Part shown: positions 1 through 47,380 of the stretch, in pieces
Position numbering within the stretch: the stretch's first letter is position 1
Layout: every line of letters begins with the position of its first letter
DNA from: a virus
Length of the DNA: 47,380 nucleotides
Virus record (IMG/VR): IMGVR_UViG_3300017960_000004
Span: 1 to 47,380 of that record
Direction: 5' to 3' (one strand)
Program-made: the position numbers and the translations under genes
The notes under the pieces: model-generated
The model's database searches: none
What the model saw: only the letters and a program-made list of their open reading frames with translations
What the model was told of the DNA's origin: nothing

Positions 1-123
1 CTTCGACTTGGTTTGCATGCGATCAGTCTACCGCGAAGGGCGCACGTAGGTATCGGCAAGCTGGCGCCGCACCTGAGCTCGGAAATTGCCCCACGCCTGC
101 GCCTCGCCCCTCCGGTGGGCGTC
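1..123. repeat. Left copy of 123-bp terminal direct repeat (circular contig overlap)
   Basis: Bases 1-123 are identical to 47258-47380. The overlap lies inside a minus-strand operon whose genes read continuously across the join (holin-like gene ending upstream, 80-aa gene following). This is what an assembler leaves when it walks round a circular molecule, so the true length is about 47,257 bp. A genuine short terminal redundancy cannot be excluded from sequence alone. Confidence 0.9.
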
Positions 124-270
124 GAGGTAGTTGATCTCCGCACCATAGGCGTCGGTGAGGGCGTCCACCAGGAACAGCGGGTCGCCCGTAGCCTGGTAGC
201 GCTCGACGTTGCGGTTTGCGCTCTCGGCGTTCACGAGAGCCCACTCGAGGTGCTTGGAGGGGAGCGGCAC
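28..270 (-). CDS. Small hypothetical protein, 80 aa
   Basis: I do not recognise the family. The product is a soluble, mainly helical 80-aa protein with a charged tail and no membrane segment, signal peptide or cysteine motif. It starts at ATG 270, 23 bases after the 62-aa gene stops, and ends 10 bases before the holin-like gene starts (47275, equivalent to base 18 on the circle). It therefore sits in a tight operon leading into membrane and spike genes. The alternative minus frame over the same DNA is arginine-rich noise. Confidence 0.7.
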   Translation of the reverse strand: MPLPSKHLEWALVNAESANRNVERYQATGDPLFLVDALTDAYGAEINYLDAHRRGEAQAWGNFRAQVRRQLADTYVRPSR

Positions 271-293
271 TCACGCACCGTAGCACGGGCTGC

Positions 294-482
294 TCACGGC
301 CCGATCAGGTGCTCGAGCGCGTGCACCGGGTCAGGCCGGCACCACTGCGCGCCGGCGCGAGCTCCAGCGCGGCGCACTTCCTCGAGGAGCTCGAGCTCGA
401 GCAGCTCGGCTTCCTGGTGCGGGGGCACCAGGAAGCGGGTCACGTCGGGGTAGGTCCGTTGTCGCAGGGGTTGTTCCTTCAT
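294..482 (-). CDS. Small acidic-helical hypothetical protein, 62 aa
   Basis: Unrecognised 62-aa protein with a leucine/glutamate-rich helix near residues 25-36 and no membrane segment. It begins at ATG 482 and precedes the 80-aa gene in the same operon. The segment between 482 and the stop of the HTTM-like gene (568) contains no other convincing gene. Gene reality rests on its ATG, its operon position and the absence of a better frame; there is no functional evidence. Confidence 0.55.
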   Translation of the reverse strand: MKEQPLRQRTYPDVTRFLVPPHQEAELLELELLEEVRRAGARAGAQWCRPDPVHALEHLIGP

Positions 483-567
483 GGCTCCACCGTACTGCCA
501 CGACTCGGCGACCTTCCGAAAAAAGTGGCAAGATGCGCAGGCGGGCGGCTGGACCTACATCGCGCGG

Positions 568-1293
568 TCAGCGTAAGACGGGCGGCGAGCGCACCAGATA
601 CAAGTACGCCAGCACGGCGTTGCCCAGGAATCCGAACGGGAACGTCGCTAAAACCCCGGCGTAAAACGCCAGGAGCGCCCAGCCGACCCACGGCCTCAGC
701 CTGGGGATCCAGGCGAAGGCGCACGCCGCCTCGACCGCCAGGGCGCACGCCTGGCCCGCTGCGAGGGCCCATTGAGGGACCGTCGCCAGCCACTGCGCGT
801 GCGGGTAGGCAAACGCTTCGATCCACACGGCCATGGACTCTCCATCGGCCCAACCAAGGCCGTGCGCCTGGAGCTTCGAGAGCGCCGCGTGGGCGTGCCA
901 CAGGCCCACGGTCGCGCTGCGCACTCCCTCGGTGCGCAGGGCCGCGGTGGACTCGACCCACAGCAGGAGCGCCGGCAGGTGCCACACGTGGTGGATCCGC
1001 TCGGCCTGCTCGACGTAGACGGCGCCCGCGACGAGGAACGCCGCCGCGGTGATCATGCTGACGCGCTCGAGCTGCGCGTCACGGACGACCGAGCACAGCA
1101 GCGCGACGGCGATCAGGGTCCGCGCCATCGGCCCCGGCGGCGCGCCAACGGTCCAGTACAGCGTGCTCGCCGGGCCGCACCACTGATGCGTCGCGGCCGG
1201 GCCAACGATCAGCGATATCCCAAGCGCGCCGGCCAGGACCAGCAGGACAAACCGGCGAGCGGCCGGCACCAGCGTATCGGGGATTTCCATCAT
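568..1293 (-). CDS. Polytopic membrane protein, HTTM-like
   Basis: A 241-aa integral membrane protein with about six hydrophobic helices. The middle section (SKLQAHGLGWADGE, about residues 138-151), followed by alternating membrane helices, resembles the HTTM (horizontally transferred transmembrane, vitamin-K-carboxylase-like) family; length and topology fit a minimal version. The active chemistry of bacterial HTTM proteins is mostly unknown. The ATG at 1293 lies inside the frame of the upstream small membrane gene, so the two may be coupled or may be one gene broken by a frameshift. Such a protein is unusual cargo for a virus and may be a host-derived accessory gene. DoxX-like or another small polytopic family is the alternative. 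Confidence 0.6.
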   Translation of the reverse strand: MMEIPDTLVPAARRFVLLVLAGALGISLIVGPAATHQWCGPASTLYWTVGAPPGPMARTLIAVALLCSVVRDAQLERVSMITAAAFLVAGAVYVEQAERIHHVWHLPALLLWVESTAALRTEGVRSATVGLWHAHAALSKLQAHGLGWADGESMAVWIEAFAYPHAQWLATVPQWALAAGQACALAVEAACAFAWIPRLRPWVGWALLAFYAGVLATFPFGFLGNAVLAYLYLVRSPPVLR

Positions 1294-2600: not shown

Positions 2601-2801
2601 CTACGACTCCAGCCGCATCCCGCACGGTCGGCAGCGGATCTCGCCGAAGGCGGCATCCGAGCACCGCCGCTCCCCGCGGGACCACACGGCGCCGCGCGGC
2701 CCGTAGCGTACCCACAACGCGGGCGCGAGCAGGCGCACCACGGGACCGCCGGCGACCATGCGCCGGAACTCAGCTAGGCGTCGCTGTTCCGCGTCTCGCA
2801 T
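2601..2801 (-). CDS. Small Cys-containing protein, 66 aa
   Basis: A 66-aa basic protein starting at ATG 2801, inside the last codons of the serine recombinase gene (28-base overlap). Its C-terminal half has Cys residues in a CSDAAFGEIRCRPCG arrangement, suggesting a small zinc knuckle, and a WVRYGPRGAVW beta segment. The coupling to the recombinase suggests co-expression; it might be an accessory DNA-binding factor, but that is a guess. Longer in-frame starts upstream run through recombinase-coding DNA and are not used. Confidence 0.55.
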   Translation of the reverse strand: MRDAEQRRLAEFRRMVAGGPVVRLLAPALWVRYGPRGAVWSRGERRCSDAAFGEIRCRPCGMRLES

Positions 2802-3496
2802 GCCCGCAAAATCCTCTGCACCGTGGTGACGTGCCAGCGCTCGCCTCGAGGCGGGTGCCGCCCCCGGTCGAGCTCGAGCCTCTCGGCGATCTCTTTCCTC
2901 GAGCAACCGTCCGCGGCGAGATCGCAGATCTCGAGGATCGTGCGCTGCTCGCCGGGATCCTCCACGAGCTGCCCCTCGCGCCAGGTGAAGCCGAAGGGCG
3001 CGCTATTGCACCACCGCTCGCCGTTCTTGCGGCGCTGCGCCAAGGCGACCTTGGTCCGCGCGCGGATCAGCTCGCGCTCGTACTCGGCGAAGCCGGCGAT
3101 CATCGTGCGCATGAGCTTGCCCTCGGGGGTGTCGTCGTTGCCGACGCCATCCACGCTCTTGAGCTGCGCCCCCTCGTCTCGGACCAGGCGCTCGATCACG
3201 GTGGACTGCTCGACGGAGCGGGCCAGGCGGTCGAGCTTAGCCACGAGCAGCACGCCCGCGCCGTAGTCCCGCAGGGCGCTCACCGCCTCGATCAGGGCGG
3301 GCCGCTGGTCGAGGCGCGCGGCGCCGCTGACCCCTACGTCCTGGTGACACGCCACGAGCTCAGCGCCCTTGTCGAGGCACCAGCGTTCGATCGCGTCGAT
3401 CTGCGCGTCGGGGCTGATCTGCTGGTCCTCGGTGGACACGCGCACGTAGCCCACGACGAGCGACGGATCGCCCTGCTGCTGCCTTTTTCTACCCAT
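2774..3496 (-). CDS. Small serine recombinase (resolvase/invertase family)
   Basis: Site-specific DNA recombinase of the serine family, 240 aa from ATG 3496. The catalytic domain shows YVRVSTEDQ (nucleophile Ser21, Arg19), the KLDRLARS motif at 87-94, and GKLMRTMIAGFAEYERELI at about 126-144, the start of the long dimer helix. A helix-turn-helix-type segment (SRKEIAERL, WHVTTVQRIL) ends the protein. It is much shorter than large serine integrases (450-600 aa) and closer to resolvases/invertases, with a little extra sequence. It may resolve multimers of the circular element, invert a segment or integrate the element; no attachment site or inverted crossover site was recognised. It lies near the end of the early operon. 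Confidence 0.93.
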   Translation of the reverse strand: MGRKRQQQGDPSLVVGYVRVSTEDQQISPDAQIDAIERWCLDKGAELVACHQDVGVSGAARLDQRPALIEAVSALRDYGAGVLLVAKLDRLARSVEQSTVIERLVRDEGAQLKSVDGVGNDDTPEGKLMRTMIAGFAEYERELIRARTKVALAQRRKNGERWCNSAPFGFTWREGQLVEDPGEQRTILEICDLAADGCSRKEIAERLELDRGRHPPRGERWHVTTVQRILRACETRNSDA

Positions 3497-9312: not shown

Positions 9313-9340
9313 GCCCGGCCCCCAAGGGGGTCGGGCTTTT
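9313..9340 (+). terminator. Rho-independent terminator of the plus operon
   Basis: GCCCGGCCCCC-AA-GGGGGTCGGGC followed by TTTT on the plus strand: an 11-bp GC stem with one G-T-type mismatch and a short U-tract. It lies 29 bases after the zinc-finger gene and abuts the stop codon of the converging 88-aa gene, so it separates the plus operon from the long minus block. Confidence 0.85.
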
Positions 9341-9605
9341 ACTTGAGCTTCCCGGCGATCACAAGCACCGCCGCCACCCCGAAGATGGCCACGGCGACCC
9401 CGCCCAGGCCGCCGACGTTTTCCGTGCTGAGCTGGCCCGCGGAGTAGCCCTCGGCGCGCACCGGCTGAGCTCGCCGAGCACGGCCCTCGAGCACGGCCTG
9501 CTGGATCGGTGGCAGCGTCGCCGCTTGCAACGGCTGCACGGGCACGCCCTCCCGAAAGAAGGTCGGGCGGGAACGCGTGAGGAGCTCGAGGGTGTTTCGA
9601 TCCAT
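9339..9605 (-). CDS. Small membrane protein, 88 aa
   Basis: An 88-aa protein with a basic N-terminal domain and one C-terminal membrane helix (GGVAVAIFGVAAVLVIAG) ending in two lysines. GGAG eight bases upstream supports ATG 9605. It is the last gene of the 22-kb minus block. Small tail-anchored proteins like this occur in membrane-containing virions; that role is inferred from context. Confidence 0.75.
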   Translation of the reverse strand: MDRNTLELLTRSRPTFFREGVPVQPLQAATLPPIQQAVLEGRARRAQPVRAEGYSAGQLSTENVGGLGGVAVAIFGVAAVLVIAGKLK

Positions 9606-9616
9606 GGGGTCGTCTC

Positions 9617-11422
9617 CTAGCGGGCGAGTGCGAGTGCGGCGGCCAGTCCCCCGCCCAGGAGCAGCAGCGCGCCCGCGCCCCCACCTCCGCTGCCGCCGAT
9701 CACGTCCTCGTCGTCCACGCCCGGCATGCCGGGCGGCACCTCGCCCTCGGCCTCGCCCTCGCCGGGAACGACCTGGCCCGGCGGAAGGTTGGGATTTTGG
9801 AGCGACGTAGCTGAACTTTTGAGCGCCTGCTCGAGCTCGGTGCGGTAGCTGGCGTCGGGGACCACCTCGAGGTCGAGGCCCTCGATCAGATCGCGGCGCT
9901 TGAGGAGCTCGCGGCGAGCATCCGCCCAGCGCTGCGCCACGTCGGTGTCCCAGATCCCGCCGAACGTGTCGTCCACGTAGGCGCACGTCGTGGTCCCCGC
10001 GAAACGCCAGCAGTTGCGGCGGTAGATCCCCATGACGAACTTGATCCAGTACCAGAGGCTGACCCGAAGGTGCGGACCCAGGTCGAGCTGCGCCGAGCTC
10101 GGCAGGTGGAACGCGTCGTCCTCGTCAAGCTCGCGCCACAGGACGTTTTTCTCGTCGTCCACGAGCTCGCGCTCGAGGAAGGCCAGGAAGTCGGCGCGGT
10201 TCGTGTCGTCCACGAGCTCGCCGCTGCGGTGCGGCGCTCTGCCGGCCTGCGCCGCCTCGAGGGCCTTTCGCATGTCGTGCACGTTGTCGTAGGCGAACAG
10301 CTCCCATGCCCCGTTTCGCTGCCGCATGGTGATCGAGCAGGACAGGTCGCCGATCAGGTAGCAGTGGCCCAGGCTCATACCGTAGCCCGGCAGCAGGCAC
10401 TCCACTTTCCCGCCAGGGAACGCGATGTTGGGCGTGAGGGCGCCCGCGCGAAAGCACGCCCTGAACCATTCCTTCCACTGCGTCTCGAGCGGACTCGGGA
10501 GCAGGCGAAACGCGTTCGGCGTGTTCTTGTTCATCGAGCTCCAAAGCTGCCCCGCGAACTGGCGCGCGCTGGGGTAGTACGTGTCGATGCTGTCCCAGCT
10601 CGAGATCTGCGGGCCCCCGCCCTGGAACGCGGCGAACTGGCGGCAGGGTCCGGGGAGGTAGGCGAACGCGTTTGCACGGAACGAGGCGCCGGGCACGAAG
10701 TAGGCGTCGCCCGTGCTCGGCCGCGTCACCGCCGGCGCGAACTCGACCCGCTCACCGCGGGTGTTGCCCTCCTCGTCGGTGAGCTTGAGGCAGGCGAAGG
10801 CGGCGCCCTGGAAGTTGTCAGCGAAGCTCCCGATCGGCGAGAAGATCGGCGACCAGTCTCCGGTGGCCGCCTGCTGGAGCACCGCTCGAGCCAGGCTCTC
10901 GTCTTCGGCCTTTTGGTACTCGAGGCGCTTGAAGCATACCGGCGGCGGCGGGCTGGTCTGGTCGCCCTGGGCCAGCGCGATGATCAGCTTGCCGAAACTC
11001 ATAGCGAGTTTCACGATCCACCCCACAATCGGGATTGACCCGATCGCGTTGGTGAATCCTTCGATGATGTCGGGAATGAACGACGAGATCGCGTCCCCGA
11101 CGATCTGGGTGGCACTCACGCCCAGGTTGTCGAGCACGCCGAACGCCTGGTCCATCGCCCCCATGAAGGTGTCGAGCTCCGGCAGCAGCGTGTCCACGAA
11201 CCCGAACGCCTCGCCCTGATCCTTGAGCGACCGGATCGAGAGCTTCTGCCAGTTTTGGAACGATGCTCTCGAGGCCGCCGCTTCCGCGTTGGCCTTCAGG
11301 AAACCCTCGGCGCTGAGCGCCGTCTCGGTCGGCAGCGAGCTCAGGAACTCGCCCTGGGCCCAGCGCTGCTGAAAGGGCATGAGCCCCGAAGGGGTTTCGT
11401 AGAGTGCATCGATCTTGGGCAT
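9617..11422 (-). CDS. Large tail-anchored protein, 601 aa, probable virion protein
   Basis: A 601-aa protein I do not recognise. Residues about 105-155 form a glycine/isoleucine-rich hydrophobic segment (SIPIVGWIVKLAMSFGKLI) that could insert in or fuse membranes. The middle 250 residues are a mixed globular domain with several cysteines and aromatic residues. A disordered Pro/Glu/Gly-rich stretch leads to a C-terminal membrane helix (GAGALLLLGGGLAAALALA). The C-terminal helix shares the LLLLGGGLA motif with the N-termini of the paralogues at 40.1-41.5 kb. The large ectodomain and terminal anchor suit a spike, vertex or entry protein. Confidence 0.7.
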   Translation of the reverse strand: MPKIDALYETPSGLMPFQQRWAQGEFLSSLPTETALSAEGFLKANAEAAASRASFQNWQKLSIRSLKDQGEAFGFVDTLLPELDTFMGAMDQAFGVLDNLGVSATQIVGDAISSFIPDIIEGFTNAIGSIPIVGWIVKLAMSFGKLIIALAQGDQTSPPPPVCFKRLEYQKAEDESLARAVLQQAATGDWSPIFSPIGSFADNFQGAAFACLKLTDEEGNTRGERVEFAPAVTRPSTGDAYFVPGASFRANAFAYLPGPCRQFAAFQGGGPQISSWDSIDTYYPSARQFAGQLWSSMNKNTPNAFRLLPSPLETQWKEWFRACFRAGALTPNIAFPGGKVECLLPGYGMSLGHCYLIGDLSCSITMRQRNGAWELFAYDNVHDMRKALEAAQAGRAPHRSGELVDDTNRADFLAFLERELVDDEKNVLWRELDEDDAFHLPSSAQLDLGPHLRVSLWYWIKFVMGIYRRNCWRFAGTTTCAYVDDTFGGIWDTDVAQRWADARRELLKRRDLIEGLDLEVVPDASYRTELEQALKSSATSLQNPNLPPGQVVPGEGEAEGEVPPGMPGVDDEDVIGGSGGGGAGALLLLGGGLAAALALAR

Positions 11423-11429
11423 GGAGCCT

Positions 11430-12026: not shown

Positions 12027-12038
12027 GGTGCTGTGCTC

Positions 12039-13453: not shown

Positions 13454-13460
13454 GGTGGTC

Positions 13461-15322: not shown

Positions 15323-15325
15323 TTT

Positions 15326-28951: not shown

Positions 28952-28953
28952 GC

Positions 28954-29871: not shown

Positions 29872-29905
29872 CGGTTTGGGTGTTGTCGAGGGGGCGGAGG
29901 GAAGG

Positions 29906-29934: not shown

Positions 29935-29965
29935 TGGTGAGCTCAAGAAGCGAGCTCTAGGCCGA

Positions 29966-30511: not shown

Positions 30512-30697
30512 GGTTCGTTCTCCGTTGGGCGAGCTCTAAAGCTCGGTTGTTTGCTCGGAGTCTCGTGCGCCACCTCGGCCTGGGCTCCGCGGCATCCACC
30601 CTCGAGGGGTGGTGGAGCGGTTGTGCTCAGGCTCTCCTCGGCACGATCGAACGGTTGGGCCCCTCCGAGAAGCGGGGCCGAAGTCTTCGGGATCGGC
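30512..30697 (-). other. Intergenic region with two hairpins upstream of the 181-aa gene
   Basis: No convincing gene. It contains CCACCC-tcgag-GGGTGG (30596-30612) and, near 30660-30680, GGCCCC and GGGGCC arms ten bases apart. These could terminate the 114-aa transcript and isolate a separate promoter for the coat genes. No clear -10/-35 pair was identified on the minus strand. Confidence 0.5.
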
Positions 30698-36355: not shown

Positions 36356-36358
36356 TCC

Positions 36359-37255
36359 GTGACGTTTCCGACCGGAGGAACAAGCGGTGCGCCGATCGAT
36401 CTGGTCAGTCTCGCCGGCGCGCCGAGCTCGGCGGGCCTGGTGGACTACCTTGTCGATCCGACGCTGAGCCCCAACCCTTCGCAGCGGATCTTCGCCGACC
36501 TGGGCGCGGCGTGTGACGCCGCCCTCGCGGACGGCAACCCAGCGAAGATCACCGTCCGTGGCAACGTCACGACCGGGCCCCGCTCCGGCGAGCTCGCGTC
36601 GGCCTACGTCGTCCCCGATGGATCCGTCCTGTGTGGCGCCACCCCCCTGCCCGTGGACTTCTCCGGCTTGGGTCCCGACGTGGTGACCCTGGGCGACGGG
36701 TCCACGTTCGCCGGCTTTGACGTGTTCCAAGACATTGGGATCACCACTACGTCGGCCGGCAGCGCGCCCCTCGATTCAGCGTTTCTGCTCGAGGGCAACA
36801 CGCTCATGCAGCGTGTCGCCGTTCTGGGCGGCGGCGCTACCTCAAATTCGGTTCTGCGCGTGCTGGCAGCGGGCACCCAGGTGTGGGTCGAGAGCAGTCT
36901 TTTTGGAGACGGCGGCAGCCAGCAGGTGATCGACACCGGCGCTTTCGCCCCGGTGATCTTCCAGATCGACTCGCGGTCGCGCATCGAGGACGACGTGTTT
37001 CGCAACGTCGTCGGCGGCGACACGCAGGTGACCTTCGAGCTTGGCTCGGAGGTAAGTACGACGCAGACCAACGCGGCCGGCACCTTCTCGATCGACCCGC
37101 TGAGCAACACGCCGGCGGGGATCCTCGAGTCGGCCGGGCCCGCGCCAGTGTTCGGCACCAACCTGTTTGCAGGGGGCGTGGGGGACAGCACCGAGGCCGT
37201 GCGACGCATGGCCCAGCTCCTGTATGTCCTGAACGGGAACACCGAGATCCCGTGA
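36359..37255 (+). CDS. Candidate receptor-binding/fibre protein, 298 aa
   Basis: Starts at GTG 36359 with the same N-terminal motif as the gene before it, then a repetitive beta pattern typical of a right-handed beta-helix or trimeric fibre (VVPDGSVLCGATPLPV, TLGDGSTFAGFDVFQD, SVLRVLAAGTQVWVES). Such proteins bind and sometimes degrade host polysaccharides. No glycosidase residues were identified with confidence. It is three bases after the 123-aa gene, so both are co-expressed. Confidence 0.65.
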   Translation: MTFPTGGTSGAPIDLVSLAGAPSSAGLVDYLVDPTLSPNPSQRIFADLGAACDAALADGNPAKITVRGNVTTGPRSGELASAYVVPDGSVLCGATPLPVDFSGLGPDVVTLGDGSTFAGFDVFQDIGITTTSAGSAPLDSAFLLEGNTLMQRVAVLGGGATSNSVLRVLAAGTQVWVESSLFGDGGSQQVIDTGAFAPVIFQIDSRSRIEDDVFRNVVGGDTQVTFELGSEVSTTQTNAAGTFSIDPLSNTPAGILESAGPAPVFGTNLFAGGVGDSTEAVRRMAQLLYVLNGNTEIP

Positions 37256-38216: not shown

Positions 38217-38519
38217 TCACTCTACCACCCAGGCCAGATCGTCGGCCGCCGCGTAGGCCCAGCCGTAGGGGCCGAGCTCCTCGCCGGCCTCGTACATGAG
38301 GGCCGGAGTCCCGTTGCGAAGGGCCAAGCGAAGTCGATCGGGCGTCGCCTCGAGGACGAAATAGGGGCACCCCTGCTTGTCCTGGACGACCTGGCCGGGC
38401 TTGAGGGCTGCACAGGTGGCCGCGGGGAGCTCGAGGGCCTTGCGCTGCGATACCAGGGCCGGGGGGTGGCACGCGGCCCTGACCATGAGGCGTTGAAGGG
38501 GGTTGAGGGGGGTCTGCAT
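38217..38519 (-). CDS. Hypothetical protein, 100 aa
   Basis: A 100-aa beta-rich protein (CAALKPGQVVQDKQGCPYFVLEATPDRLRL...) whose ATG (38519-38517) overlaps the first ATG of the PAPS-reductase-like gene on the other strand. A -10-like TACCAT seven bases upstream suggests leaderless translation. The family is unrecognised; the small beta-barrel look suggests a binding domain. Confidence 0.65.
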   Translation of the reverse strand: MQTPLNPLQRLMVRAACHPPALVSQRKALELPAATCAALKPGQVVQDKQGCPYFVLEATPDRLRLALRNGTPALMYEAGEELGPYGWAYAAADDLAWVVE

Positions 38520-38544
38520 GCGTAGGATGGTACGATACGACGTG
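38517..38544. promoter_or_regulatory. Overlapping divergent start codons and -10 elements
   Basis: CATG at 38517-38520 provides an ATG on each strand. TACCAT on minus (38532-38527) lies seven bases before the minus ATG. TACGAT on plus (38531-38536) lies five bases before the in-frame GTG 38542, an alternative start for the plus gene. The two -10-like hexamers overlap, so transcription in the two directions would be mutually exclusive. Confidence 0.45.
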
Positions 38545-40101
38545 TCTGCGCTGCTGCCTGGCTTCGAGGATCTCGAGGACGCCCCTCGAGCCGGCGCGTC
38601 ACGCATCTCGGCGCTGACTTACCCCACGGCCCCCATGCCGAAGACGTGGAACGGGCGCCGCCTGGTGCTCCACCGGGGCCTGTACTACCTGTTCCCCGAC
38701 GAAACGGCCAACGGTTACGGTCCCGGCTCGATCTCCACTCGAGCACCGGACGGGACTCGAGCACCGGACGGGTTTGTCAACCCTCGAGCTCGGTTCGTGC
38801 TCGAGGACGGGCGCGTCCGCGAGCTCCGGCCGCTCCCGGCCTGGCGGCGCTCGTCGCCGTCGCCGTCCTCGCCTTGGGAGCGGATCCCCGAAAAGCAGCA
38901 GCTCGCCAAGATGCGCGGCAAAAGCCGCGCGGTGCTGCGCTACCAAGGCCGGATCTACAAGCACCCCGACAAGGCGGCGAAGGGTGGAGGACGCGAGCTT
39001 TACCAGGGAAAGATCGCCGGCGTCGCGCCCGGTGGCCCGGTCTGGTGGAGCTCGAGGGCCAAGCCCGACGAGATCTACCGCCTCGACCCGCTGACAGACT
39101 CCCAGGTGCTGGCGATCCAGTTTGCCTGCTGGCTCGGCGCTCGCTACGACCTCACCACCCAGCGCGGGCGAGCTCGAGCGCTCCAGTACCTCGTGAACGA
39201 ACTAGACGCCCTGGTCGTGGTCAATCACAGCGGGGGCAAGGACTCGCAGGCCATGTATGCCTACCTCACCCGCGAGCTCAAGCTGCCGCGCGGCAACATC
39301 GAGGTGATCCACGCCGACCTCCCCGACGCGGACTGGCCGGGCACCTGGGACCACATTCGCGCCAACGTCGATCACACTCCCGTCAAGGTCCAGGCGACGA
39401 TGGGCGACGACAAGCCCAAGCTGCTCACCGAGTACGTGCTGCGCCGGGGAAGGTGGCCGAGCGCCCAGCAGCGCTACTGCACCAGCGACCTGAAGCGTGA
39501 CCCGATCGACAAGTGGGTACGCGCGAAGGTGGACGAGCGTAACGCCGACGTGCTCGAGGGGCGCCAGGTGGACCTTCCGATCCACGGAGCTCGCCGGATC
39601 ATCGTCAACGCGATCGGCCTGCGTGCCGAGGAGAGCGACGACCGAGCCTACCTCAACCCCTGGGAGACGAACCTCGCCGATAGCGCGCGCAACCGGATCT
39701 GGATCGACTACCTCCCGATCCACCCGTGGACAACCGAGCAGGTGTTTGCGCAGATCAAGCGAGCCGGCCAGGAGCCGTTTTGGATCTACGGGCAGACGCC
39801 GGCGCACCGCGAGCGCCTGCGCAAGTACGGTGCGGTGGACAACGCCGGTAACGTCGTACCGATGCAGCGCATGAGCTGCACGTTCTGCATCATGGGCTCG
39901 ATCCGTGACCTGGGCGTGGCTTCCCTGGTCCACCCGGAGCGGGTCGAAACCTACTGCAACATTGAAAAGGCCACGAAGCACCGTTTCCGCGCGGGTGTAG
40001 ACTTCGGCGAGCTCGTGGAGAGGGGGCGTCGGGCGGTCGCCACGGCCACCGAGGACGCAGCGCGCAAGGTGCGTGCCAAGCGCCTGCGGGTTGTGCGATG
40101 A
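38518..40101 (+). CDS. PAPS-reductase/DndC-like ATP pyrophosphatase, 527 aa
   Basis: The N-terminal ~200 residues are unassigned and include a duplicated TRAPDG. The rest is an adenine-nucleotide alpha-hydrolase domain: VVVNHSGGKDSQAMYAY with the PP-loop SGGKDS at 238-243, RYCTSDLKRDP (Cys321), IGLRAEESDDR, and CTFCIMG (Cys454, Cys457). A Cys plus a downstream CxxC can bind an iron-sulphur cluster as in DndC and related phage PAPS reductases. The family activates or transfers sulphur, sometimes to DNA or tRNA. No dnd partners are present. Start ATG 38518; GTG 38542 is possible. Confidence 0.85.
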   Translation: MRRMVRYDVSALLPGFEDLEDAPRAGASRISALTYPTAPMPKTWNGRRLVLHRGLYYLFPDETANGYGPGSISTRAPDGTRAPDGFVNPRARFVLEDGRVRELRPLPAWRRSSPSPSSPWERIPEKQQLAKMRGKSRAVLRYQGRIYKHPDKAAKGGGRELYQGKIAGVAPGGPVWWSSRAKPDEIYRLDPLTDSQVLAIQFACWLGARYDLTTQRGRARALQYLVNELDALVVVNHSGGKDSQAMYAYLTRELKLPRGNIEVIHADLPDADWPGTWDHIRANVDHTPVKVQATMGDDKPKLLTEYVLRRGRWPSAQQRYCTSDLKRDPIDKWVRAKVDERNADVLEGRQVDLPIHGARRIIVNAIGLRAEESDDRAYLNPWETNLADSARNRIWIDYLPIHPWTTEQVFAQIKRAGQEPFWIYGQTPAHRERLRKYGAVDNAGNVVPMQRMSCTFCIMGSIRDLGVASLVHPERVETYCNIEKATKHRFRAGVDFGELVERGRRAVATATEDAARKVRAKRLRVVR

Positions 40102-41537: not shown

Positions 41538-42242
41538 ATGGAGACGGGTCTGGTCCTGGCCCTGGTCGGCGGCGCGCTGGTGGTTGCCGCGGCGGCGGGC
41601 AGCTCGAGCTTGAGCTCAGGTGGCGGCGGCAGCGGCGGCGGCCTGAGTCCCGCCCCTGGTCCCCCAGCGGGCCCCGACGTGCAGGCGCCGGGCGCCGGCC
41701 AGCCTCCAGAGCCGATCATCGTCGGCCAGGCCACGAACCCGGAGGTGGGTGCGCTGCTGGCGGAGCTCGACCAGTACCTACGCAGCGCCGGGATCAGCAC
41801 CGACCTGATCGACGCCCAGGAGCTCACGCGGCTGCCCAAGTGGTCGAGGCAGGGGATCCCGCCGCGCAGTCTGTGGCCCAACATCGTGCCCACGGCGCGG
41901 CTCTACCAGGAGCTCCGCGCCCGCATGCGGCAGCCCCTGAGCGTGCGGGCGTACCGGCCGCCGGAGTACAACGAGCTGGTCAACGGCGCCGAGCGATCCC
42001 AGCACCAGTGGTTCTCGGCGATGGACGTGCGCGTGCCCAGCTCGGTCGCTACGTCCGATCTGCGCCGCGAGCTCGCGCTCCAGGGGGCGCGGCTCTACCT
42101 CGAGCTCGGCGAGCCTTTCCAGATCGGCCTGGGCGTCTACGGCGCGAACACCCCCTCCAACATTCACATCGACGCAGGCTACCAGCGTCGCACCTGGCGA
42201 GACGCGAAGGCGTGGATCGACCGAGTGAAGGCTGAAGCATGA
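41538..42242 (+). CDS. Membrane-anchored M15-type peptidase, 234 aa
   Basis: A hydrophobic N-terminal anchor (LVLALVGGALVVAAAAG), Gly/Pro-rich linker and a zinc peptidase domain of the M15 (D-Ala-D-Ala carboxypeptidase / endolysin) type: RAYRPPEYNELV, SQHQWFSAMDV with ligands His156 and Asp163, and SNIHIDAG with His210. It would cleave peptide crosslinks of peptidoglycan. It lies directly upstream of a soluble paralogue. The anchor suggests a virion-entry role rather than a free endolysin. Confidence 0.85.
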   Translation: METGLVLALVGGALVVAAAAGSSSLSSGGGGSGGGLSPAPGPPAGPDVQAPGAGQPPEPIIVGQATNPEVGALLAELDQYLRSAGISTDLIDAQELTRLPKWSRQGIPPRSLWPNIVPTARLYQELRARMRQPLSVRAYRPPEYNELVNGAERSQHQWFSAMDVRVPSSVATSDLRRELALQGARLYLELGEPFQIGLGVYGANTPSNIHIDAGYQRRTWRDAKAWIDRVKAEA

Positions 42243-42964
42243 GCACAGACCACCGAGAGACGTACATTCGCCGCCTGCTCGAGGACGCGCAGGTGTCCGC
42301 GGCGCAGACGATGCACCTGCTCGAAGAGGCCGAGCGCGCCATGCTCGAGCACGACCAGGGCGGCGACGAAGACCCCGGCGAGGGCGACGACGACGGGCCG
42401 GAGCCCGACCACGAGCCGATCGCCTATGGCTCGTGGCCGCCGCCCGCGGCGATGGTATCGGGACCGGCGTCGGACCCGAAGATCGCGCCGCTCCTCGAGG
42501 ACATGGAAGCGTACCTGGCTTCGCACGAGGAGCTCACCGGCGTGGGGTGGTCGGCCCAGGAGATCTGCACCATGCCCAAGGCGCCGGGGCGCCCGGTGGC
42601 GATCCCGGTGCGGGGGCTGTGGCACCACATGGTCCCTACCCTCGCGCTCTACGAGGAGCTGCGCGAGCTCCTGGGCCAGCCGTGCTCGCTGAGGGGCTAC
42701 CGACCGCCCGACTACAACGCGGCCGTGGGTGGGGCTTCTCGCAGCGCTCACCTATGGTTTGCGGCGCTGGACGTGTACGCCCCCGTTGATCATCGCCGCG
42801 AGCTCGCCGAGCTCGCCGCCGAAATATTCGCCGCGCGCCCCGACCTCCAGGTGGGCCTCGGTATCTACGGCTATCCTCACTCGAGCAACATTCACATCGA
42901 CGTAGGTGCCAAGGGGCGCCGCACCTGGGCGGACACGCAACAATGGTTATCCAACGCAAAGTGA
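42239..42964 (+). CDS. M15-type peptidase paralogue, 241 aa
   Basis: No hydrophobic anchor; instead an acidic, helical N-terminus (about 60 residues) precedes the same peptidase domain: RGYRPPDYNAAV, SAHLWFAALDV (His171, Asp178), SSNIHIDVG (His219). It starts at ATG 42239 (ATGA overlap). The shared layout of LW...VPT..LYEELR indicates that the two arose by duplication and then gained different N-termini, one anchored and one probably cytoplasmic, as expected if one works at entry and one at lysis. Confidence 0.85.
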   Translation: MSTDHRETYIRRLLEDAQVSAAQTMHLLEEAERAMLEHDQGGDEDPGEGDDDGPEPDHEPIAYGSWPPPAAMVSGPASDPKIAPLLEDMEAYLASHEELTGVGWSAQEICTMPKAPGRPVAIPVRGLWHHMVPTLALYEELRELLGQPCSLRGYRPPDYNAAVGGASRSAHLWFAALDVYAPVDHRRELAELAAEIFAARPDLQVGLGIYGYPHSSNIHIDVGAKGRRTWADTQQWLSNAK

Positions 42965-43155
42965 AAAAGACCAAGCACGGGCGCTGGCGCGTGCTTGGCC
43001 CTGTGATCATGGAGGACCGGAGCTGGCCGGGCCGCAAGCGCATGGAGTACGCGTGCCTCGGCTTCCAGGGCGACCCGGTGGGCGAGCAGTACAACCGTTG
43101 GATGCGCGCGGTGGAGAAGCGGATTCGCAAGCTCAAGCTGAAAGTAAGACCATGA
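42943..43155 (+). CDS. Small basic protein, 70 aa
   Basis: A 70-aa Lys/Arg-rich protein with two tryptophan-containing segments (GRWRVLGPVIMEDRSW, YNRWMRAVEKRI) and a basic C-terminus (RKLKLKVRP). It overlaps the peptidase gene by 22 bases and couples to the 282-aa gene (ATGA). Likely nucleic-acid or membrane binding by charge; family unrecognised. Confidence 0.65.
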   Translation: MVIQRKVKKTKHGRWRVLGPVIMEDRSWPGRKRMEYACLGFQGDPVGEQYNRWMRAVEKRIRKLKLKVRP

Positions 43156-44000
43156 GCGATCCAAAAGCCGAACTAGACCGGAAGCTACAACGGGTCCAGG
43201 AGAACCTACTTGAGCTCAAGCAGCAGCCGGAGTGGCAGACCAACCGTCCGTACCAGGCCATGCTCGAGGCGACGGTCGCCTACGCCGACACCGGCCTGCG
43301 CGACGCGATCTGGATCTGGGCTCAGATGTTCGTGGACGTGGCCGCGACGGGCGTGTGGAATTGGGCCCAGGGGACCAAGCACACGCAGATCCCGGCCGAG
43401 TTTGAGCAGTTGTTCGACGGGCTCTACAACCGTATCGCCCAGGCGCAGAGCGTCGAGGAGGTGTATGACGCCCTTTACGCGACCATGTGGGATGCCTCCA
43501 CGATCGGGATCCTCATGCGGCCTGGTGTCAGCTACAGCTCGACCAAGGCGACGTTCCACATTCGCACGAACGAGACGCTGCTGCGCCAGGGCGCCGAGGC
43601 GATCTGGGAGATCCTCGAGGCCAGTCGCCGGGTCGCGCCGATCGCCTTGACGCTCGAGGCGGCGGTCCTGGCCCAGGGCCTCGACGGGCCCGCGCCCCAG
43701 GCCGCCCAGCAGCTCGTCTTCTACACGACCGACTCAAGTGGACGTGAGCGACCGCCGGTGTGGGTGCAGATCCATACGGCCCTGGTCGGAGCGCACGTGA
43801 GCGAGCAGATCGCGCTTCAGAACAGCGAGACGTGGGTCAAGCAGTGGGACGAAGCCGCGGGTGGTCCAGCGCTGCGCAAGCTCGGCGACATCATCGGCGA
43901 GGGCCTCGAGGCGGCCGGCGGCGTCGCCGGCCTGGCGATCATCGGCCTGGGCGTCGCCGCCGCGGTCGTGATCCTGCCGCGGGTTTTCGGGCGAGGCTGA
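43152..44000 (+). CDS. Tail-anchored helical protein, 282 aa
   Basis: A largely helical 282-aa protein with a charged N-terminus (ELDRKLQRVQENLLELKQQP), aromatic helices (IWIWAQMFVDVAATGVWNW) and a C-terminal membrane helix (GGVAGLAIIGLGVAAAVVILP). The domain has no recognised family. The terminal anchor matches the 601-aa and 88-aa proteins, suggesting membrane association in the virion or envelope. Confidence 0.7.
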   Translation: MSDPKAELDRKLQRVQENLLELKQQPEWQTNRPYQAMLEATVAYADTGLRDAIWIWAQMFVDVAATGVWNWAQGTKHTQIPAEFEQLFDGLYNRIAQAQSVEEVYDALYATMWDASTIGILMRPGVSYSSTKATFHIRTNETLLRQGAEAIWEILEASRRVAPIALTLEAAVLAQGLDGPAPQAAQQLVFYTTDSSGRERPPVWVQIHTALVGAHVSEQIALQNSETWVKQWDEAAGGPALRKLGDIIGEGLEAAGGVAGLAIIGLGVAAAVVILPRVFGRG

Positions 44001-44003
44001 GCC

Positions 44004-44630
44004 ATGGAGGCGCACGAGCTCCGCGATCTGCTGGACGACGCTCGAGGGAGTCTGCTGCTTGACGTGCGCACGCCGGAGGAGGCCGCGCTCGTCAGCATCC
44101 CCGGCGCCGTCAGGATCCCCCTCGACCGCCTGCACCGGCCCGAAAACCTGGCCTTACTGCTCGAGCTCCAGCGCGGCGACGTGCGCCGCCCGATCGTCGT
44201 TTTTTGCGCCAAGGGGCGCCGCTCCGCGGTTGCAGCTCAGATCTTGCGCGCGTTCGGCTTCCGTGACGTGGTGGACGCCGGCGGCCTCGAGACGAACCCG
44301 CTTCGCCGGATCGTGGCCAGCCTCGAGCCGGTCTGGCGCCGGCCTCCCGTCGATCTTCGGCCCGTCGCATACCAGTTCTACCGGGACAACCCGATCCCCT
44401 CGACCGACCCCGGCGACGCGAGCTACCAGCGGCTCGCGTGGTCGATCGGGCTCCCGACTGGCGCGGACGCTTACGCCCTTCTCCAGGAGCTCGAGGGGGC
44501 GGTGATCGACGTGCCCGGCCTGGGCGCCTACCAGCCGTTCCGGCGGCAGTCCTTGCTCGAGTACACGCGCGGCCAGATCCAGCAGGCGACGGGCGGCGCG
44601 GCCTTTGAGCCCTGGGAAGGCTTCGAGTAG
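44004..44630 (+). CDS. Rhodanese-domain protein, 208 aa
   Basis: Residues 1-105 form a rhodanese domain: SLLLDVRTPEEAALV, IPGAVRIPLDRL, and the active loop CAKGRRS with Cys68, followed by VVDAGGL. The six-residue loop matches sulphurtransferases that move a persulphide to an acceptor. The second half is unassigned and includes a Pro-rich stretch. With the PAPS-reductase-like enzyme it gives the element two sulphur-handling proteins. No stop/start overlap with the spike gene, which faces it. Confidence 0.88.
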   Translation: MEAHELRDLLDDARGSLLLDVRTPEEAALVSIPGAVRIPLDRLHRPENLALLLELQRGDVRRPIVVFCAKGRRSAVAAQILRAFGFRDVVDAGGLETNPLRRIVASLEPVWRRPPVDLRPVAYQFYRDNPIPSTDPGDASYQRLAWSIGLPTGADAYALLQELEGAVIDVPGLGAYQPFRRQSLLEYTRGQIQQATGGAAFEPWEGFE

Positions 44631-44637: not shown

Positions 44638-45999
44638 TCAGTCGAGGCTCACGAGCGCCAGCACGCAGGAGTCCACGATCAGATCCACGGTGTCGGTCAG
44701 GTTGGCGATCTCCACGGCGATGCCAGCCATGGGGGGTAGCCCCGTGACCGTGGTCTGCGGTCGCACGAAACCCGACGAGAGCAGGAAACCGCCGGTGACG
44801 GCCGTAAAGGCCGAGAGGAAGGTGGCCGGCCCTCCGCCCGCGGGCTCGAGCACGATCTGAGCTGCGAACGCCTTGTTCAGGCCGTCTGCCGAGCGCACCG
44901 ACAACGCCGCGGCGACGCTTACGTTTGCCGCCTCCCAATCTGCCCACCGCAGCACTGCCGTGTCGGCGCCGCCAGGCTGATCGAGCTCCACCCGCCCGCT
45001 GCCCGGCGAGAGCGTGAACAGGGGGTGGCTGGCGTTGCCGTTGCCCACGCGGACGGCGTTGGTGACCTCCCCGCCGGGCTGGATCACGCCCACGGCAGAG
45101 ATCACCGTTTCCTCGGCGCTGGGGTTTCCGTTGTAGCCTGCTTCCCCGCCGAAGGTGGAGTCGGCGACGCCCGCGTTGGCGGTCAAAAAGACGCCGGGCA
45201 GATCGGTCAGGTCGCCCAGGTTGGCGGGGTTCAGGGCCGTGCCACCCAAGGGCAAAAAGTCGTTCTCACTGATCCGCAGGAGGCTCCCAGGGTCGGCCGG
45301 CAGGTTCGCAAGGGTGAAGCTCGCCCCCGACGCATCGATCCCGGTGTGGCCAGGGAGCACCGTGTAGACGCAGTTGCTCACGCGAATGTACTGCGGCGTG
45401 CCACCGATCACTAGCTGGGTCGGGGTCTGACCAGGTGCGCCCACGTGCGCGCAGCGGCTTATTTCGATCGCAGTGTTGCTGCCCTCGAGCTCGATCCCCA
45501 CCACGGTGCAGCGGTCCAGGACGTTGACCGTGCCCGCGACTTGATCGATCACCCTCACCCCTCGAGTGCCTGCGACGGAGGTGCGCTCGCACCTCGACCC
45601 GCGCCCTGCCGGGTTGGCCCCGTTCGTGAGCTCGACGCACCACGCGTTGACGCCCGCGTTCGGGTTGACCAGGAACACGTCGGTCACGACGCAGCCGTCG
45701 CCGGAACCGCTGATCAGTGGGCCGTCCACGTCGCCGATCAGTCCAGAGGTTTCGGCGTCGCACCCCTTCAGGACCGTGCTGGTTCCCAGGACGATCCGTT
45801 GCCCAGGAGGCAGCACGATCGGGGTCAGCAGCACGACGCAAGTGTCCGGGATCGCCAGCGTGCGCACGCCGGCGCCGTTGGCGGGGGCGAGCTGGTCGAG
45901 CCTTGCCAGGCTGTTCACGTAGACGATGCCGGCGGGGCTGAGTCCATCGGGCAGCGCAAGATCGACGGGGGTGCCTTGGGGGGTGCCGGTCAGCGACAT
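44638..45999 (-). CDS. Beta-helix spike / receptor-binding candidate, 453 aa
   Basis: Begins MSLTGTPQGTPVDLALPDG, similar to the shared N-terminal motif of the 36.0-37.3 kb genes. Residues about 50-300 show short, regularly spaced strands with Gly/Asn turns (VVLLTPIVLPPGQRIVLG, GCVVTDVFLVNPNAG, NVLDRCTVVGIELEG, AIEISRCAHVG) typical of a right-handed beta-helix such as pectate-lyase-like tailspikes. The C-terminal 130 residues look like a jelly-roll knob. It probably binds or trims host polysaccharide. Last gene of the minus operon entering from the contig join. Confidence 0.75.
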   Translation of the reverse strand: MSLTGTPQGTPVDLALPDGLSPAGIVYVNSLARLDQLAPANGAGVRTLAIPDTCVVLLTPIVLPPGQRIVLGTSTVLKGCDAETSGLIGDVDGPLISGSGDGCVVTDVFLVNPNAGVNAWCVELTNGANPAGRGSRCERTSVAGTRGVRVIDQVAGTVNVLDRCTVVGIELEGSNTAIEISRCAHVGAPGQTPTQLVIGGTPQYIRVSNCVYTVLPGHTGIDASGASFTLANLPADPGSLLRISENDFLPLGGTALNPANLGDLTDLPGVFLTANAGVADSTFGGEAGYNGNPSAEETVISAVGVIQPGGEVTNAVRVGNGNASHPLFTLSPGSGRVELDQPGGADTAVLRWADWEAANVSVAAALSVRSADGLNKAFAAQIVLEPAGGGPATFLSAFTAVTGGFLLSSGFVRPQTTVTGLPPMAGIAVEIANLTDTVDLIVDSCVLALVSLD

Positions 46000-46092
46000 G
46001 AACCCATTTTGGCATAACTGATGCGCGACGTGCGATTTTGGTCTGATCGGGCCATGAGCGCCACGAGCACGCCCCAGGGCGCTCCCCGCTCC
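46000..46092. promoter_or_regulatory. AT-richer spacer with direct repeats and a vestigial anchor peptide
   Basis: Direct repeats of ATTTTGG at 46006-46012 and 46035-46041. On minus, CAAAAT lies six bases before ATG 45999, a possible leaderless promoter. On plus, ATG 46054 begins a short peptide MSATSTPQGAPRSLEL that resembles the spike's N-terminus (MSLTGTPQGTPVDLAL) but then runs head-on into the converging 167-aa gene. This may be the remnant of an inverted duplicate. Confidence 0.5.
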
Positions 46093-46596
46093 CTAGAGCT
46101 TGCTCCGCAGGACCCGTCCCTCGGCCTCGACCAGGGGGGCGGGCTTCTCCTCGTTCGCCTCGCGCACCGACTGTGGCGCGCTCTCGAGCAGGATCTTTCG
46201 CTGGTCGGCCCCCTGCTCGATCTGGAGGGCCCCGATGTTGCGCAGCGCGTCTGCCTGGGCCTCCGATGCCGCCTTTGCGGCCTTTACGTGGGCCTCAAAC
46301 TGTTCGGTGAGCCGGTCTACCCTGGCGTCCTGGGCGGCCTCGTGGCTCACCTCGGCCTCGGCCAGGCCGCCCTGCTGGTAGATCCAGGCGACCACGCCCA
46401 CGGCGACGCCGGCCGCAGCCACGACGCCCGCGATGATTGCCTGAGCTCGCTTCCAGGCGCGCCCGGCCTCAGCCTCGGCCTCCACCTCGGCCGCGACGCG
46501 AGCGCTGCGCTGCTGCTCGGTCGCGTCGCCGATCGCCCTGGCCACGGCGGACTGGATCGACTGCTCGAGCTCGTCGGGAACGGCGGTGGTGGTCAC
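46093..46596 (-). CDS. Single-pass membrane coiled-coil protein, 167 aa
   Basis: Starts at GTG 46596 (GTGA overlap). An acidic Ala-rich helix precedes one membrane helix (AQAIIAGVVAAAGVAVGVVAWIY, about 50-73) and a long C-terminal helix (DRLTEQFEAHVKAAKAASEAQADAL). This topology resembles small inner-membrane lysis proteins (i-spanin-like) or virion membrane proteins. With the holin-like gene two positions upstream, a lysis role is plausible. Confidence 0.7.
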   Translation of the reverse strand: MTTTAVPDELEQSIQSAVARAIGDATEQQRSARVAAEVEAEAEAGRAWKRAQAIIAGVVAAAGVAVGVVAWIYQQGGLAEAEVSHEAAQDARVDRLTEQFEAHVKAAKAASEAQADALRNIGALQIEQGADQRKILLESAPQSVREANEEKPAPLVEAEGRVLRSKL

Positions 46597-46934
46597 GGCT
46601 GCCTCCACTCGAAGACGGCCGCGCAGGCGTCGAGGTACAGCGGCCAGTGACCCCAGCCCCACGACGCCTGCACGGCCTTGCTTTCGCGCACGGCGAGCTC
46701 CCCCGCGTCACCATAGCGCGACTCGCCGAGCTCGATGTTCCTCTTGTGACGCCGGAACCAGTTGCAGACCTCGAGGGCGTCGAGCTGCTCGCCCGCGGCT
46801 ATCTTGCGCGCCTGGTCGAGCCCCTTCGGCGTCATGGCGCGCTTGCTTTGGGGCAGCTCGTCGCGGATCTCGAGCACGCGCCGGGCGAACCGCCTCGAGC
46901 TCGCCCGCGGTGTGACGCGCGGACGAGAGCTCAC
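46593..46934 (-). CDS. Phage-type hypothetical protein, 113 aa
   Basis: From GTG 46934. The sequence AMTPKGLDQARKIAAGEQLD, then NWFRRHKRN and an aromatic tail (ASWGWGHWPLYLD), follows a pattern I associate with small phage head or internal proteins (G..lA..ia.G..l....v..~wf.RH...W..W...). The match is to the arrangement, not to a named family. Coupled to genes on both sides. Confidence 0.6.
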   Translation of the reverse strand: MSSRPRVTPRASSRRFARRVLEIRDELPQSKRAMTPKGLDQARKIAAGEQLDALEVCNWFRRHKRNIELGESRYGDAGELAVRESKAVQASWGWGHWPLYLDACAAVFEWRQP

Positions 46935-47275
46935 CGATCCGCCTTCTCCCCTTCGCGCGGCAGCTCGATCGGCGTCGTGTCCTCCTCCGGCGGGCGCTCG
47001 GCCGGCGCGAGCTCGCGGTCCTCGAGGGCGGCGGCGCCGGCCTCGAGCTCGGCTCCGAGCGTCTTGCCGTGCTTCCAGTCCAGGCCGCCGAAGATCACCG
47101 CGGCGAGCGAGAGCAGGCCCGTCACCAGATCAAAAGCCAGTTCCGGGGTAAGGCCCAGCTTCGCCAGGAGCCCGGTGTTGTGAAGCATGATCAGCGTCAC
47201 GCCCAGGACGGCCGCGACCGGGTTCCCGAAGCGGCTTGTGGGCGGAAGTACAGGACGCTTCGACTTGGTTTGCAT
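46931..47275 (-). CDS. Holin-like membrane protein, 114 aa
   Basis: Two hydrophobic helices close to the N-terminus (NPVAAVLGVTLIMLHNTGLL, FDLVTGLLSLAAVIFGGL) with a short turn, a charged cytoplasmic-type C-terminal tail rich in Glu/Pro, and total length 114 aa: the topology and size of class II holins. Holins form holes that release or activate lysis enzymes. Start ATG 47275 equals base 18 on the circle. The next genes downstream are a phage-type protein and a coiled-coil membrane protein. Confidence 0.7.
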   Translation of the reverse strand: MQTKSKRPVLPPTSRFGNPVAAVLGVTLIMLHNTGLLAKLGLTPELAFDLVTGLLSLAAVIFGGLDWKHGKTLGAELEAGAAALEDRELAPAERPPEEDTTPIELPREGEKADR

Positions 47276-47380
47276 GCGATCAGTCTACCGCGAAGGGCGC
47301 ACGTAGGTATCGGCAAGCTGGCGCCGCACCTGAGCTCGGAAATTGCCCCACGCCTGCGCCTCGCCCCTCCGGTGGGCGTC
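47258..47380. repeat. Right copy of 123-bp terminal direct repeat (circular contig overlap)
   Basis: Identical to bases 1-123. It contains the start of the holin-like gene and the end of the 80-aa gene, and shows that the molecule closes on itself. Confidence 0.9.

What the first reader, a model, noticed from the sequence alone, without database searches (positions are those of the whole stretch)
1..47380. Circular 47-kb element that looks like a tailless, membrane-containing virus rather than a tailed phage
Phage-type accessory genes, a lysis-like set, spike candidates and wall-degrading enzymes are present, yet I see no terminase, portal, HK97 capsid, tape measure or tail gene. At least 14 proteins carry one Gly/Leu/Ala-rich membrane segment, and two pairs of beta-rich proteins could be coat proteins. 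Tailless phages with internal membranes (tectiviruses, corticoviruses, sphaerolipovirus-like) have this mix but genomes of about 10-31 kb. A 47-kb member, probably in a Myxococcota host, would be a new lineage.
Basis: partly seen in the sequence, partly recalled or inferred. Interest (0 to 1): 0.88.

Follow-up and report, generated by a model that had tools for sequence, protein, structure and literature searches.

The report
Large tailless membrane-virus candidate resembling SSIP-1
This circular 47-kb piece of DNA is most likely a virus of bacteria that has no tail and carries a membrane inside its shell, built like one poorly understood salt-lake phage (SSIP-1, 44 kb), but it is unusual in having no recognisable motor for packing its DNA; its shell proteins are still unproven.

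Summary
The observation largely holds. The record is circular (exact 123-bp end repeat; 47,257-bp unit). None of 67 called proteins matches a terminase, portal, HK97 capsid, tail or conjugation family, and no P-loop ATPase is visible in any frame. Membrane proteins are concentrated in the minus-strand block 9.3-31 kb (7 of 20, against 13% on average in 56 control loci). One premise is wrong: tailless membrane phages are not limited to 31 kb. [quoted passage not shown] 43,788 bp, T=49, two coat proteins) has the same plan: a co-directional structural block with a giant methyltransferase protein (g30, 2427 aa, matches structural gp43, 2319 aa, 35.6% identity over 239 aa), then an adjacent paralogous pair shortly downstream. 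Here that pair is g27 (180 aa) and g26 (g27-like domain plus about 100 aa), my best coat candidates. The methyltransferase alone proves nothing, because tailed phages also carry it. Coat homology failed by sequence, and both fold models were too poor to judge. No close relative turned up. SSIP-1 has an ATPase and a primase; this element shows neither. Best reading: a new SSIP-1-like tailless virus, about 60%. Ranking: new variant of a known kind.

The parts
1..123 (.). Exact direct terminal repeat, copy 1 (copy 2 at 47258-47380); the circular unit is 47,257 bp
2774..3454 (-). g6, small serine recombinase (resolvase/integrase family); match to SSIP-1 gp3
   Evidence: Pfam Resolvase 3.4e-37 and phrog_95 8.8e-51; SSIP-1 gp3 phmmer 1e-13 and SW z=17.7
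9339..31042 (-). Co-directional block g42..g23 (20 genes), inferred virion module; 7 of 20 proteins have a membrane segment
9339..9605 (-). g23, 88 aa, C-terminal membrane segment, GYSAGQ motif just before it
9617..11422 (-). g24, 601 aa, two hydrophobic segments incl. a Gly/Leu/Ala C-terminal anchor; no relative in any collection searched
11430..12026 (-). g25, 198 aa, N-terminal membrane segment
12039..12911 (-). g26, 290 aa: g27-like domain (1-188) plus ~100-aa C-terminal domain (weak Ig/FN3-like hits); candidate large coat protein
   Evidence: paralogy; poor model and hits
12911..13453 (-). g27, 180 aa: candidate small coat protein, paralogue of g26
   Evidence: SW z=6.7, 0/1000 shuffles; AlphaFold pLDDT 38.5
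13461..14510 (-). g28, 349 aa, basic, five copies of the G[YFMV][SAG][VAI]G[QSNA] motif; possible multivalent linker
14507..15322 (-). g29, 271 aa, basic, Lys/Ala/Pro histone-H1-like C-terminal tail
   Evidence: sequence; pI
15326..22609 (-). g30, 2427 aa giant protein with N6-adenine-type methyltransferase domain (about 311-545, ILMNPPFE); counterpart of SSIP-1 structural protein gp43
22609..22947 (-). g31, 112 aa, Arg/Ala-rich, shares the C-terminal tag TRAxIR with g30 and g32
22950..24581 (-). g32, 543 aa, ChaB-like N-terminus (inferred), ParB-like C-terminal region (inferred from HILDGHHRW motif; phrog_2859), C-terminal tag TRAAIRALAGG
24584..24988 (-). g33, 134 aa, membrane segment preceded by GYAVGQ
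25684..26442 (-). g35, 252 aa, N-terminal membrane segment; transglycosylase-like by eye only
   Evidence: no Pfam support
26829..28429 (-). g37 and g38, N-terminal Gly/Leu/Ala membrane segments
28451..28951 (-). g39, 166 aa, transglutaminase-like (C/H/D pattern by eye); suggestive match to SSIP-1 gp34, a Pfam transglutaminase
   Evidence: SW z=2.6, 6/300 shuffles; gp34 Transglut_core 8.9e-07; g39 itself has no Pfam hit
28954..30511 (-). g40 (305 aa) and g41 (181 aa), beta-rich by appearance; alternative coat, vertex or spike-base candidates
   Evidence: no homologues
31229..32557 (+). g43, 442 aa, coiled coil plus low-complexity linker, divergent from the block (gp33-like layout only, no homology)
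32559..33224 (-). Uncalled gene (~220 aa) with coding-type codon-position GC; its frame stays open into the antisense of g43
35352..35927 (+). g48, phage Dam-type N6-adenine methyltransferase
   Evidence: Pfam Dam 9.6e-15; phrog_111 5.1e-24
35984..37255 (+). g49/g50, spike-like beta proteins by appearance (inference)
   Evidence: no family hits
38518..40101 (+). g55, PAPS-reductase-like protein; the same family is annotated in SSIP-1 (gp25) and P23-77 (gp05)
   Evidence: phrog_424 9.8e-33
41679..42964 (+). g59/g60, tandem peptidase M15 (endolysin) paralogues, 46% identical
43152..44630 (+). g62 (C-terminal membrane anchor) and g63 (rhodanese domain fused to a ~100-aa extension)
44638..45999 (-). 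g64, 453 aa, beta-helix/spike-like by appearance (inference)
   Evidence: no family hits
46093..47275 (-). g65-g67, lysis-like set: membrane plus coiled protein (Rz-like, weak) and a two-TM holin-like protein

Best explanation
A complete (circular-mapping) genome of a tailless, internal-membrane-containing dsDNA virus of a high-GC bacterium, organised like SSIP-1. Shown: circularity, a single co-directional block rich in one-TM proteins, the giant methyltransferase protein homologous to a protein annotated as structural in SSIP-1, a paralogous protein pair shortly downstream as in SSIP-1, serine recombinase and PAPS reductase as in SSIP-1, and absence of tail genes. Inferred: g27 (small) and g26 (large, with an extra outer domain) form the capsid shell; g23, g24, g25, g33, g35, g37 and g38 sit in an internal membrane; g30, g31 and g32 are carried inside the particle, recruited by their shared C-terminal tag, and enter the host with the DNA to protect it; spike-like proteins bind the host; M15 peptidases and the holin-like set release progeny; the recombinase allows integration or resolution. 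How the DNA is packed is not explained by any gene: either an unrecognisable or host NTPase, or condensation by the basic proteins g28, g29, g31 and g32.
For: Circularity. No tail, terminase, portal or HK97 family and no P-loop ATPase. g30 hits SSIP-1 gp43, blastp 6e-26, 35.6% over 239 aa, phmmer 2.8e-27, hhalign 99%; both are >2300 aa, in the middle of the block, and gp43 is annotated structural. Membrane-protein content 7/20 against 7/25 in the SSIP-1 block, 13/33 in P23-77, 8/42 in SH1, and 12.9% mean in 56 control loci. Adjacent paralogous pair g27/g26 placed as gp45/gp46 are. Small plus large coat size pattern matches P23-77 VP16 173 aa / VP17 291 aa. PAPS reductase in all three genomes. 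g6 ~ gp3. SSIP-1 is tailless, membrane-containing, 44 kb, T=49, two MCP types (PMC6260650, PMC6356626).
Against: No detectable sequence relation of g26/g27 to SSIP-1 gp45/46 or P23-77/SH1 coat proteins, although the same test also misses the accepted pair VP17/VP4. Fold predictions uninformative. The methyltransferase domain also occurs in many tailed phages, PAPS reductase and M15 likewise. No ATPase or primase, whereas SSIP-1, P23-77 and SH1 have a structural or packaging ATPase. The membrane-protein fraction (35%) is high but one control locus reaches 40%.
Confidence: 0.6

Rival explanations
1. A tailed phage (Caudoviricetes) whose head, portal, terminase and tail genes have diverged beyond recognition; g24, g30 and neighbours would be tail or ejection proteins.
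For: The g30 methyltransferase, g32 region, PAPS reductase and M15 lysins have relatives in tailed phages; half of 48 records found through the methyltransferase carry a phrog_2 terminase.
Against: The terminase large subunit is the most conserved tailed-phage gene and needs a P-loop: none in any reading frame. In control record G001, with a related giant protein, the terminase is plain to see. The structural block is unusually rich in single-TM proteins. No tape-measure-like protein.
Confidence: 0.12
2. A helper-dependent satellite or non-viral mobile element (plasmid-like) that carries phage accessory and polyvalent anti-defence genes but does not make its own complete particle or pack its own DNA.
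For: No ATPase, no recognisable replication protein, no recognisable capsid; giant polyvalent-type proteins also occur on conjugative elements (own knowledge of the literature).
Against: No relaxase or T4SS; no match of six block proteins to 72,556 plasmids; a 20-gene co-directional block with many membrane anchors, wall enzymes and spike-like proteins fits a full virion programme; 47 kb is large for a satellite.
Confidence: 0.15
3. An incomplete or segmented genome: the ATPase and replication genes lie on another molecule or were lost in assembly, and the 123-bp repeat closes only part of the genome.
For: Missing packaging and replication genes; an uncalled gene at 32559-33224 runs open into g43, which could reflect an assembly or sequence error.
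Against: Exact 123-bp end repeat, 92% coding, orderly gene order that closes across the junction.
Confidence: 0.08

Closest known systems
[quoted passage not shown] unclassified dsDNA phage)
   Same: Circular dsDNA of 44 vs 47 kb; giant methyltransferase-bearing protein (2319 vs 2427 aa) in mid-block; adjacent paralogous pair shortly after it; TM-rich structural block; transglutaminase-like and (by eye) transglycosylase-like proteins; PAPS reductase; serine recombinase.
   Different: Only g30-gp43 and g6-gp3 are clearly homologous by sequence; the paralogous pair is 180+290 aa here and 210+211 aa there with no detectable relation; SSIP-1 has an annotated ATPase (gp40), primase (gp38), sigma factor and a separate integrase (gp13), none recognised here; the ParB-like domain (by eye in both) is part of gp43 in SSIP-1 but on a separate protein (g32) here; GC 69%.
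Thermus phage P23-77 (Matsushitaviridae, Halopanivirales, Helvetiavirae)
   Same: Adjacent small (173 aa) and large (291 aa) coat genes, TM-rich proteome (13/33), PAPS reductase, lysozyme plus transglycosylase, circular dsDNA.
   Different: 17 kb; packaging ATPase present; no giant protein; no detectable sequence similarity of coat proteins to g27/g26.
Haloarcula virus SH1 (Sphaerolipoviridae)
   Same: Adjacent small and large coat genes, internal membrane, one very large structural protein.
   Different: 31 kb linear with packaging ATPase; archaeal host; no detectable coat similarity.
Tailed phages with giant methyltransferase polyvalent proteins (e.g. Thalassomonas phage BA3, Vibrio phage vB_ValP_FGH, record G001)
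   Same: Homologous methyltransferase domain in a giant protein.
   Different: BA3 and G001 carry plain terminase genes (BA3 also portal and coat) and few membrane proteins.

Membership tests
SSIP-1-type phage | Giant (>2300 aa) methyltransferase-bearing virion protein in the structural block | tested here: met
   g30 ~ gp43, 35.6% over 239 aa, E 6e-26; virion location of g30 itself is inferred
SSIP-1-type phage | Adjacent paralogous pair (candidate MCPs) shortly downstream of the giant gene | tested here: met
   g27/g26 z=6.7; gp45/gp46 z=14
SSIP-1-type phage | Homologous coat proteins | tested here: inconclusive
   no signal, but the accepted pair VP17/VP4 also gives none
SSIP-1-type phage | Structural ATPase (gp40) and primase (gp38) | tested here: not met
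SSIP-1-type phage | Tailless icosahedral virion with internal membrane | not testable with these tools
   needs EM and lipid analysis
[quoted passage not shown]
   AlphaFold pLDDT 38.5 and 42.4; no usable Foldseek match
Halopanivirales / Helvetiavirae | Packaging ATPase | tested here: not met
   no P-loop protein
Tectiliviricetes (PRD1/PM2-like, double jelly roll) | Double-jelly-roll capsid and packaging ATPase matching known families | tested here: not met
   no Pfam or PHROG match; capsid fold itself untested
Caudoviricetes | Terminase large subunit | tested here: not met
Caudoviricetes | Portal, HK97 capsid, tape measure or tail proteins | tested here: not met
   no family at E<=0.01 among those listed
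Conjugative element | Relaxase and type IV secretion genes | tested here: not met

The most novel reading that the evidence does not exclude
A large tailless membrane virus that fills its capsid without any virus-encoded packaging NTPase: the 47-kb genome is condensed by virus-encoded basic, histone-H1-like proteins and enclosed during assembly, with anti-defence proteins g30-g32 loaded by a common C-terminal tag and capsid-membrane contacts organised by the repeated G[Y]xxG[Q] motif.
Probability: 0.13. Interest if true: 0.85.

Novelty: new variant of a known kind. Interest (0 to 1): 0.58.

Why it matters
[quoted passage not shown] A second genome with the same plan would show that large tailless membrane phages form a hidden lineage that family databases miss, would give a first comparison to define its core genes, and would pose a testable puzzle: how such a virus packs 47 kb without a recognisable motor.

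Tried and rejected
Relatives: eight viral-contig scans (g24, g40, g41, g30, methyltransferase A2, A3 = g27/g26, A6 = g59/g60, A7 = SSIP-1 coats), two genome-contig scans, tblastn in phages and plasmids: no relative of any block protein except g30 and g32 regions. These pattern scans only reach close relatives. The 80 methyltransferase loci share nothing else of the block with the window or SSIP-1; the closest, G001, is a tailed phage, so the methyltransferase was rejected as sole proof. L105 (M15 relative) is a tailed phage by its portal-like and coat-like proteins, judged by eye. Structure: g27 alone and g26+g27 gave low-confidence models; Foldseek lists were not used except to note weak Ig/FN3-like hits for g26. 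A suggestive short g27-gp45 helix match did not survive shuffling (7/100). Positional equivalents g35/gp54, g43/gp33 and g24/gp53 show no sequence relation. Host: relatives cannot be drawn for a virus record, so host was not tested. A replication-protein resemblance of the uncalled gene at 32559-33224, noticed by eye, found no family support.
Full report
WHAT WAS CHECKED. The window is a virus record of 47,380 bases; bases 1-123 recur exactly at 47258-47380, so the map closes at 47,257 bp. No tRNA or Rfam family is present. I called 67 genes with a codon-model dynamic programme (proteins); 92% of the sequence is coding. There is one large minus-strand block, g42 to g23 (31.0 to 9.3 kb), flanked by early/accessory-type modules. 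One further minus-strand gene (32559-33224) was missed because its frame runs open into g43; its codon-position GC (0.75/0.50/0.81) matches the gene mean (0.71/0.49/0.87), while the overlapping continuation does not.

ABSENCE OF TAIL GENES IS REAL. All 67 proteins were scanned against PHROGs, Pfam and NCBIfam; most were also scanned one by one in PHROGs. Recognised: serine recombinase g6, Dam-type methyltransferase g48, rhodanese g63, peptidase M15 g59/g60, ASCH (g20), PAPS reductase g55, ChaB-like (assigned to g32 by eye), the methyltransferase domain of g30 and a few early phage families. No terminase, portal, capsid, tail, relaxase or T4SS family passed the threshold in the listed output. 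A regular-expression search in all six frames found no credible Walker A, and the seven GK[ST]-type strings in called proteins lie in no P-loop context. Since a terminase needs a P-loop, a conventional tailed phage is unlikely. The same fact also removes the packaging ATPase expected of known tailless dsDNA viruses.

tblastn of g30 against annotated phages returned, among tailed phages, Salisaeta icosahedral phage 1. SSIP-1 is a tailless, internal-membrane phage: 100 nm, T=49, circular dsDNA of 44 kb, with two coat-protein types (PMC6260650, PMC6356626, PMC4958249). The 2012 paper itself was not held. g30 and SSIP-1 gp43 align at 35.6% over 239 aa, E 6e-26, hhalign 99%; gp43 is annotated as a structural protein. 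Both are over 2300 aa and sit mid-block. Shortly downstream, SSIP-1 has adjacent paralogues gp45/gp46 (210 and 211 aa, z=14, both annotated structural); the window has adjacent paralogues g27/g26 (180 and 290 aa; z=6.7, 0 of 1000 shuffles), where g26 is a g27-like domain plus about 100 aa. The small-plus-large layout also matches P23-77 VP16 (173 aa) and VP17 (291 aa). g39 shows a suggestive match to the transglutaminase-like structural protein gp34 (6 of 300 shuffles). g6 matches gp3, and PAPS reductases occur in SSIP-1, P23-77 and here.

CONTROLS. The methyltransferase alone is not diagnostic: 24 of 48 records carrying it also carry a phrog_2 terminase, and the best-scoring one without a phrog_2 hit, G001, still has an obvious terminase and is a tailed phage. 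Membrane content separates better: 7 of 20 proteins in the window block, 7 of 25 in the SSIP-1 block, 13 of 33 in P23-77, 8 of 42 in SH1, 3 of 40 in tailed BA3, and 12.9% on average in 56 control loci around related methyltransferases (maximum 40%). Sequence tests for coat homology were negative, but the same method barely sees VP16/VP7 and misses VP17/VP4, so the negatives carry little weight. Structure prediction was the intended decider and failed: pLDDT 38.5 (g27 alone) and 42.4 (g26 with g27), no usable Foldseek result. With no relatives found, no better alignment could be made.

HOW IT MOST LIKELY WORKS. g27 and g26 build the shell, with the extra g26 domain outward (inferred). The one-TM proteins line an internal membrane (inferred from segments and from the SSIP-1 parallel). 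g30, g31 and g32 end in the same tag, TRA-x-IR followed by 3-6 residues, found three times here and once convincingly in all other viral DNA held; I read it as a virion-loading signal, so that methyltransferase and ParB-like functions enter the cell with the DNA. A second motif, G[YFMV][SAG][VAI]G[QSNA], occurs 8 times, only in block proteins g23, g28 (five copies), g33 and g41, against a shuffled mean of 0.4 and maximum of 3 (the pattern was chosen after seeing the sequences, so the statistic flatters it); in g23 and g33 it lies just before the membrane segment, which would fit a docking or maturation site. Lysis is by the M15 peptidases with the g65-g67 set (weak). Packing of the DNA is unexplained. 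Host protein use, an unrecognised NTPase, a second molecule, or condensation by basic proteins g28, g29, g31 and g32 (pI about 10-11) remain open.

VERDICT. A probable second genome with SSIP-1-like architecture, too divergent to be called a relative on more than two genes, and not assignable to Halopanivirales because the ATPase criterion is not met and the coat fold is untested. The Myxococcota host is plausible (GC 69%, a lipoprotein with a Gly-Asp repeat tract) but rests on general knowledge only.

Noticed in passing
window 15326-24581: Three consecutive products (g32, g31, g30) share a C-terminal tag [AD]TRAxIR plus 3-6 residues; one other convincing case in about 3.7 million residues of six-frame viral translation held.
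   Followed up: partly
g23, g28 (x5), g33, g41 (window 9339-30511): Recurrent motif G[YFMV][SAG][VAI]G[QSNA], only in the minus-strand block; absent from the tailed control G001, one loose match in SSIP-1 gp53.
   Followed up: partly
window 40108-40407 and 40697-40996: 300-nt tandem duplication (86% identical): a relic copy of the start of g56 follows g56.
   Followed up: no
window 41298-41475: 48-bp repeat, 3.7 copies, forming much of g58 (IPERADFQEGSQEP units).
   Followed up: no
window 33099-33140: AT-rich near-perfect palindrome (TTTAACCAGATCTTGGTTAAA type) in an otherwise 69% GC region; candidate operator or origin element.
   Followed up: no
window 32244-33224 (-): Coding-type reading frame lacking a stop before it runs antisense into g43; possible frameshift or truncated gene.
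   Followed up: partly
window 6712-7077: g17 lipoprotein with a long Gly-Asp repeat followed by a Cys-rich tail, a style recalled from Nannocystaceae (Myxococcota) secreted proteins; host hint only.
   Followed up: no
window 5015-5578: g13 is 57% identical over its first 112 aa to an early protein of two Pseudomonas aeruginosa phages, a sign of gene exchange with unrelated phages.
   Followed up: partly
window 44004-44630: g63 fuses a rhodanese domain to a ~100-aa unknown extension, next to the membrane-anchored g62; unusual for a virus.
   Followed up: no
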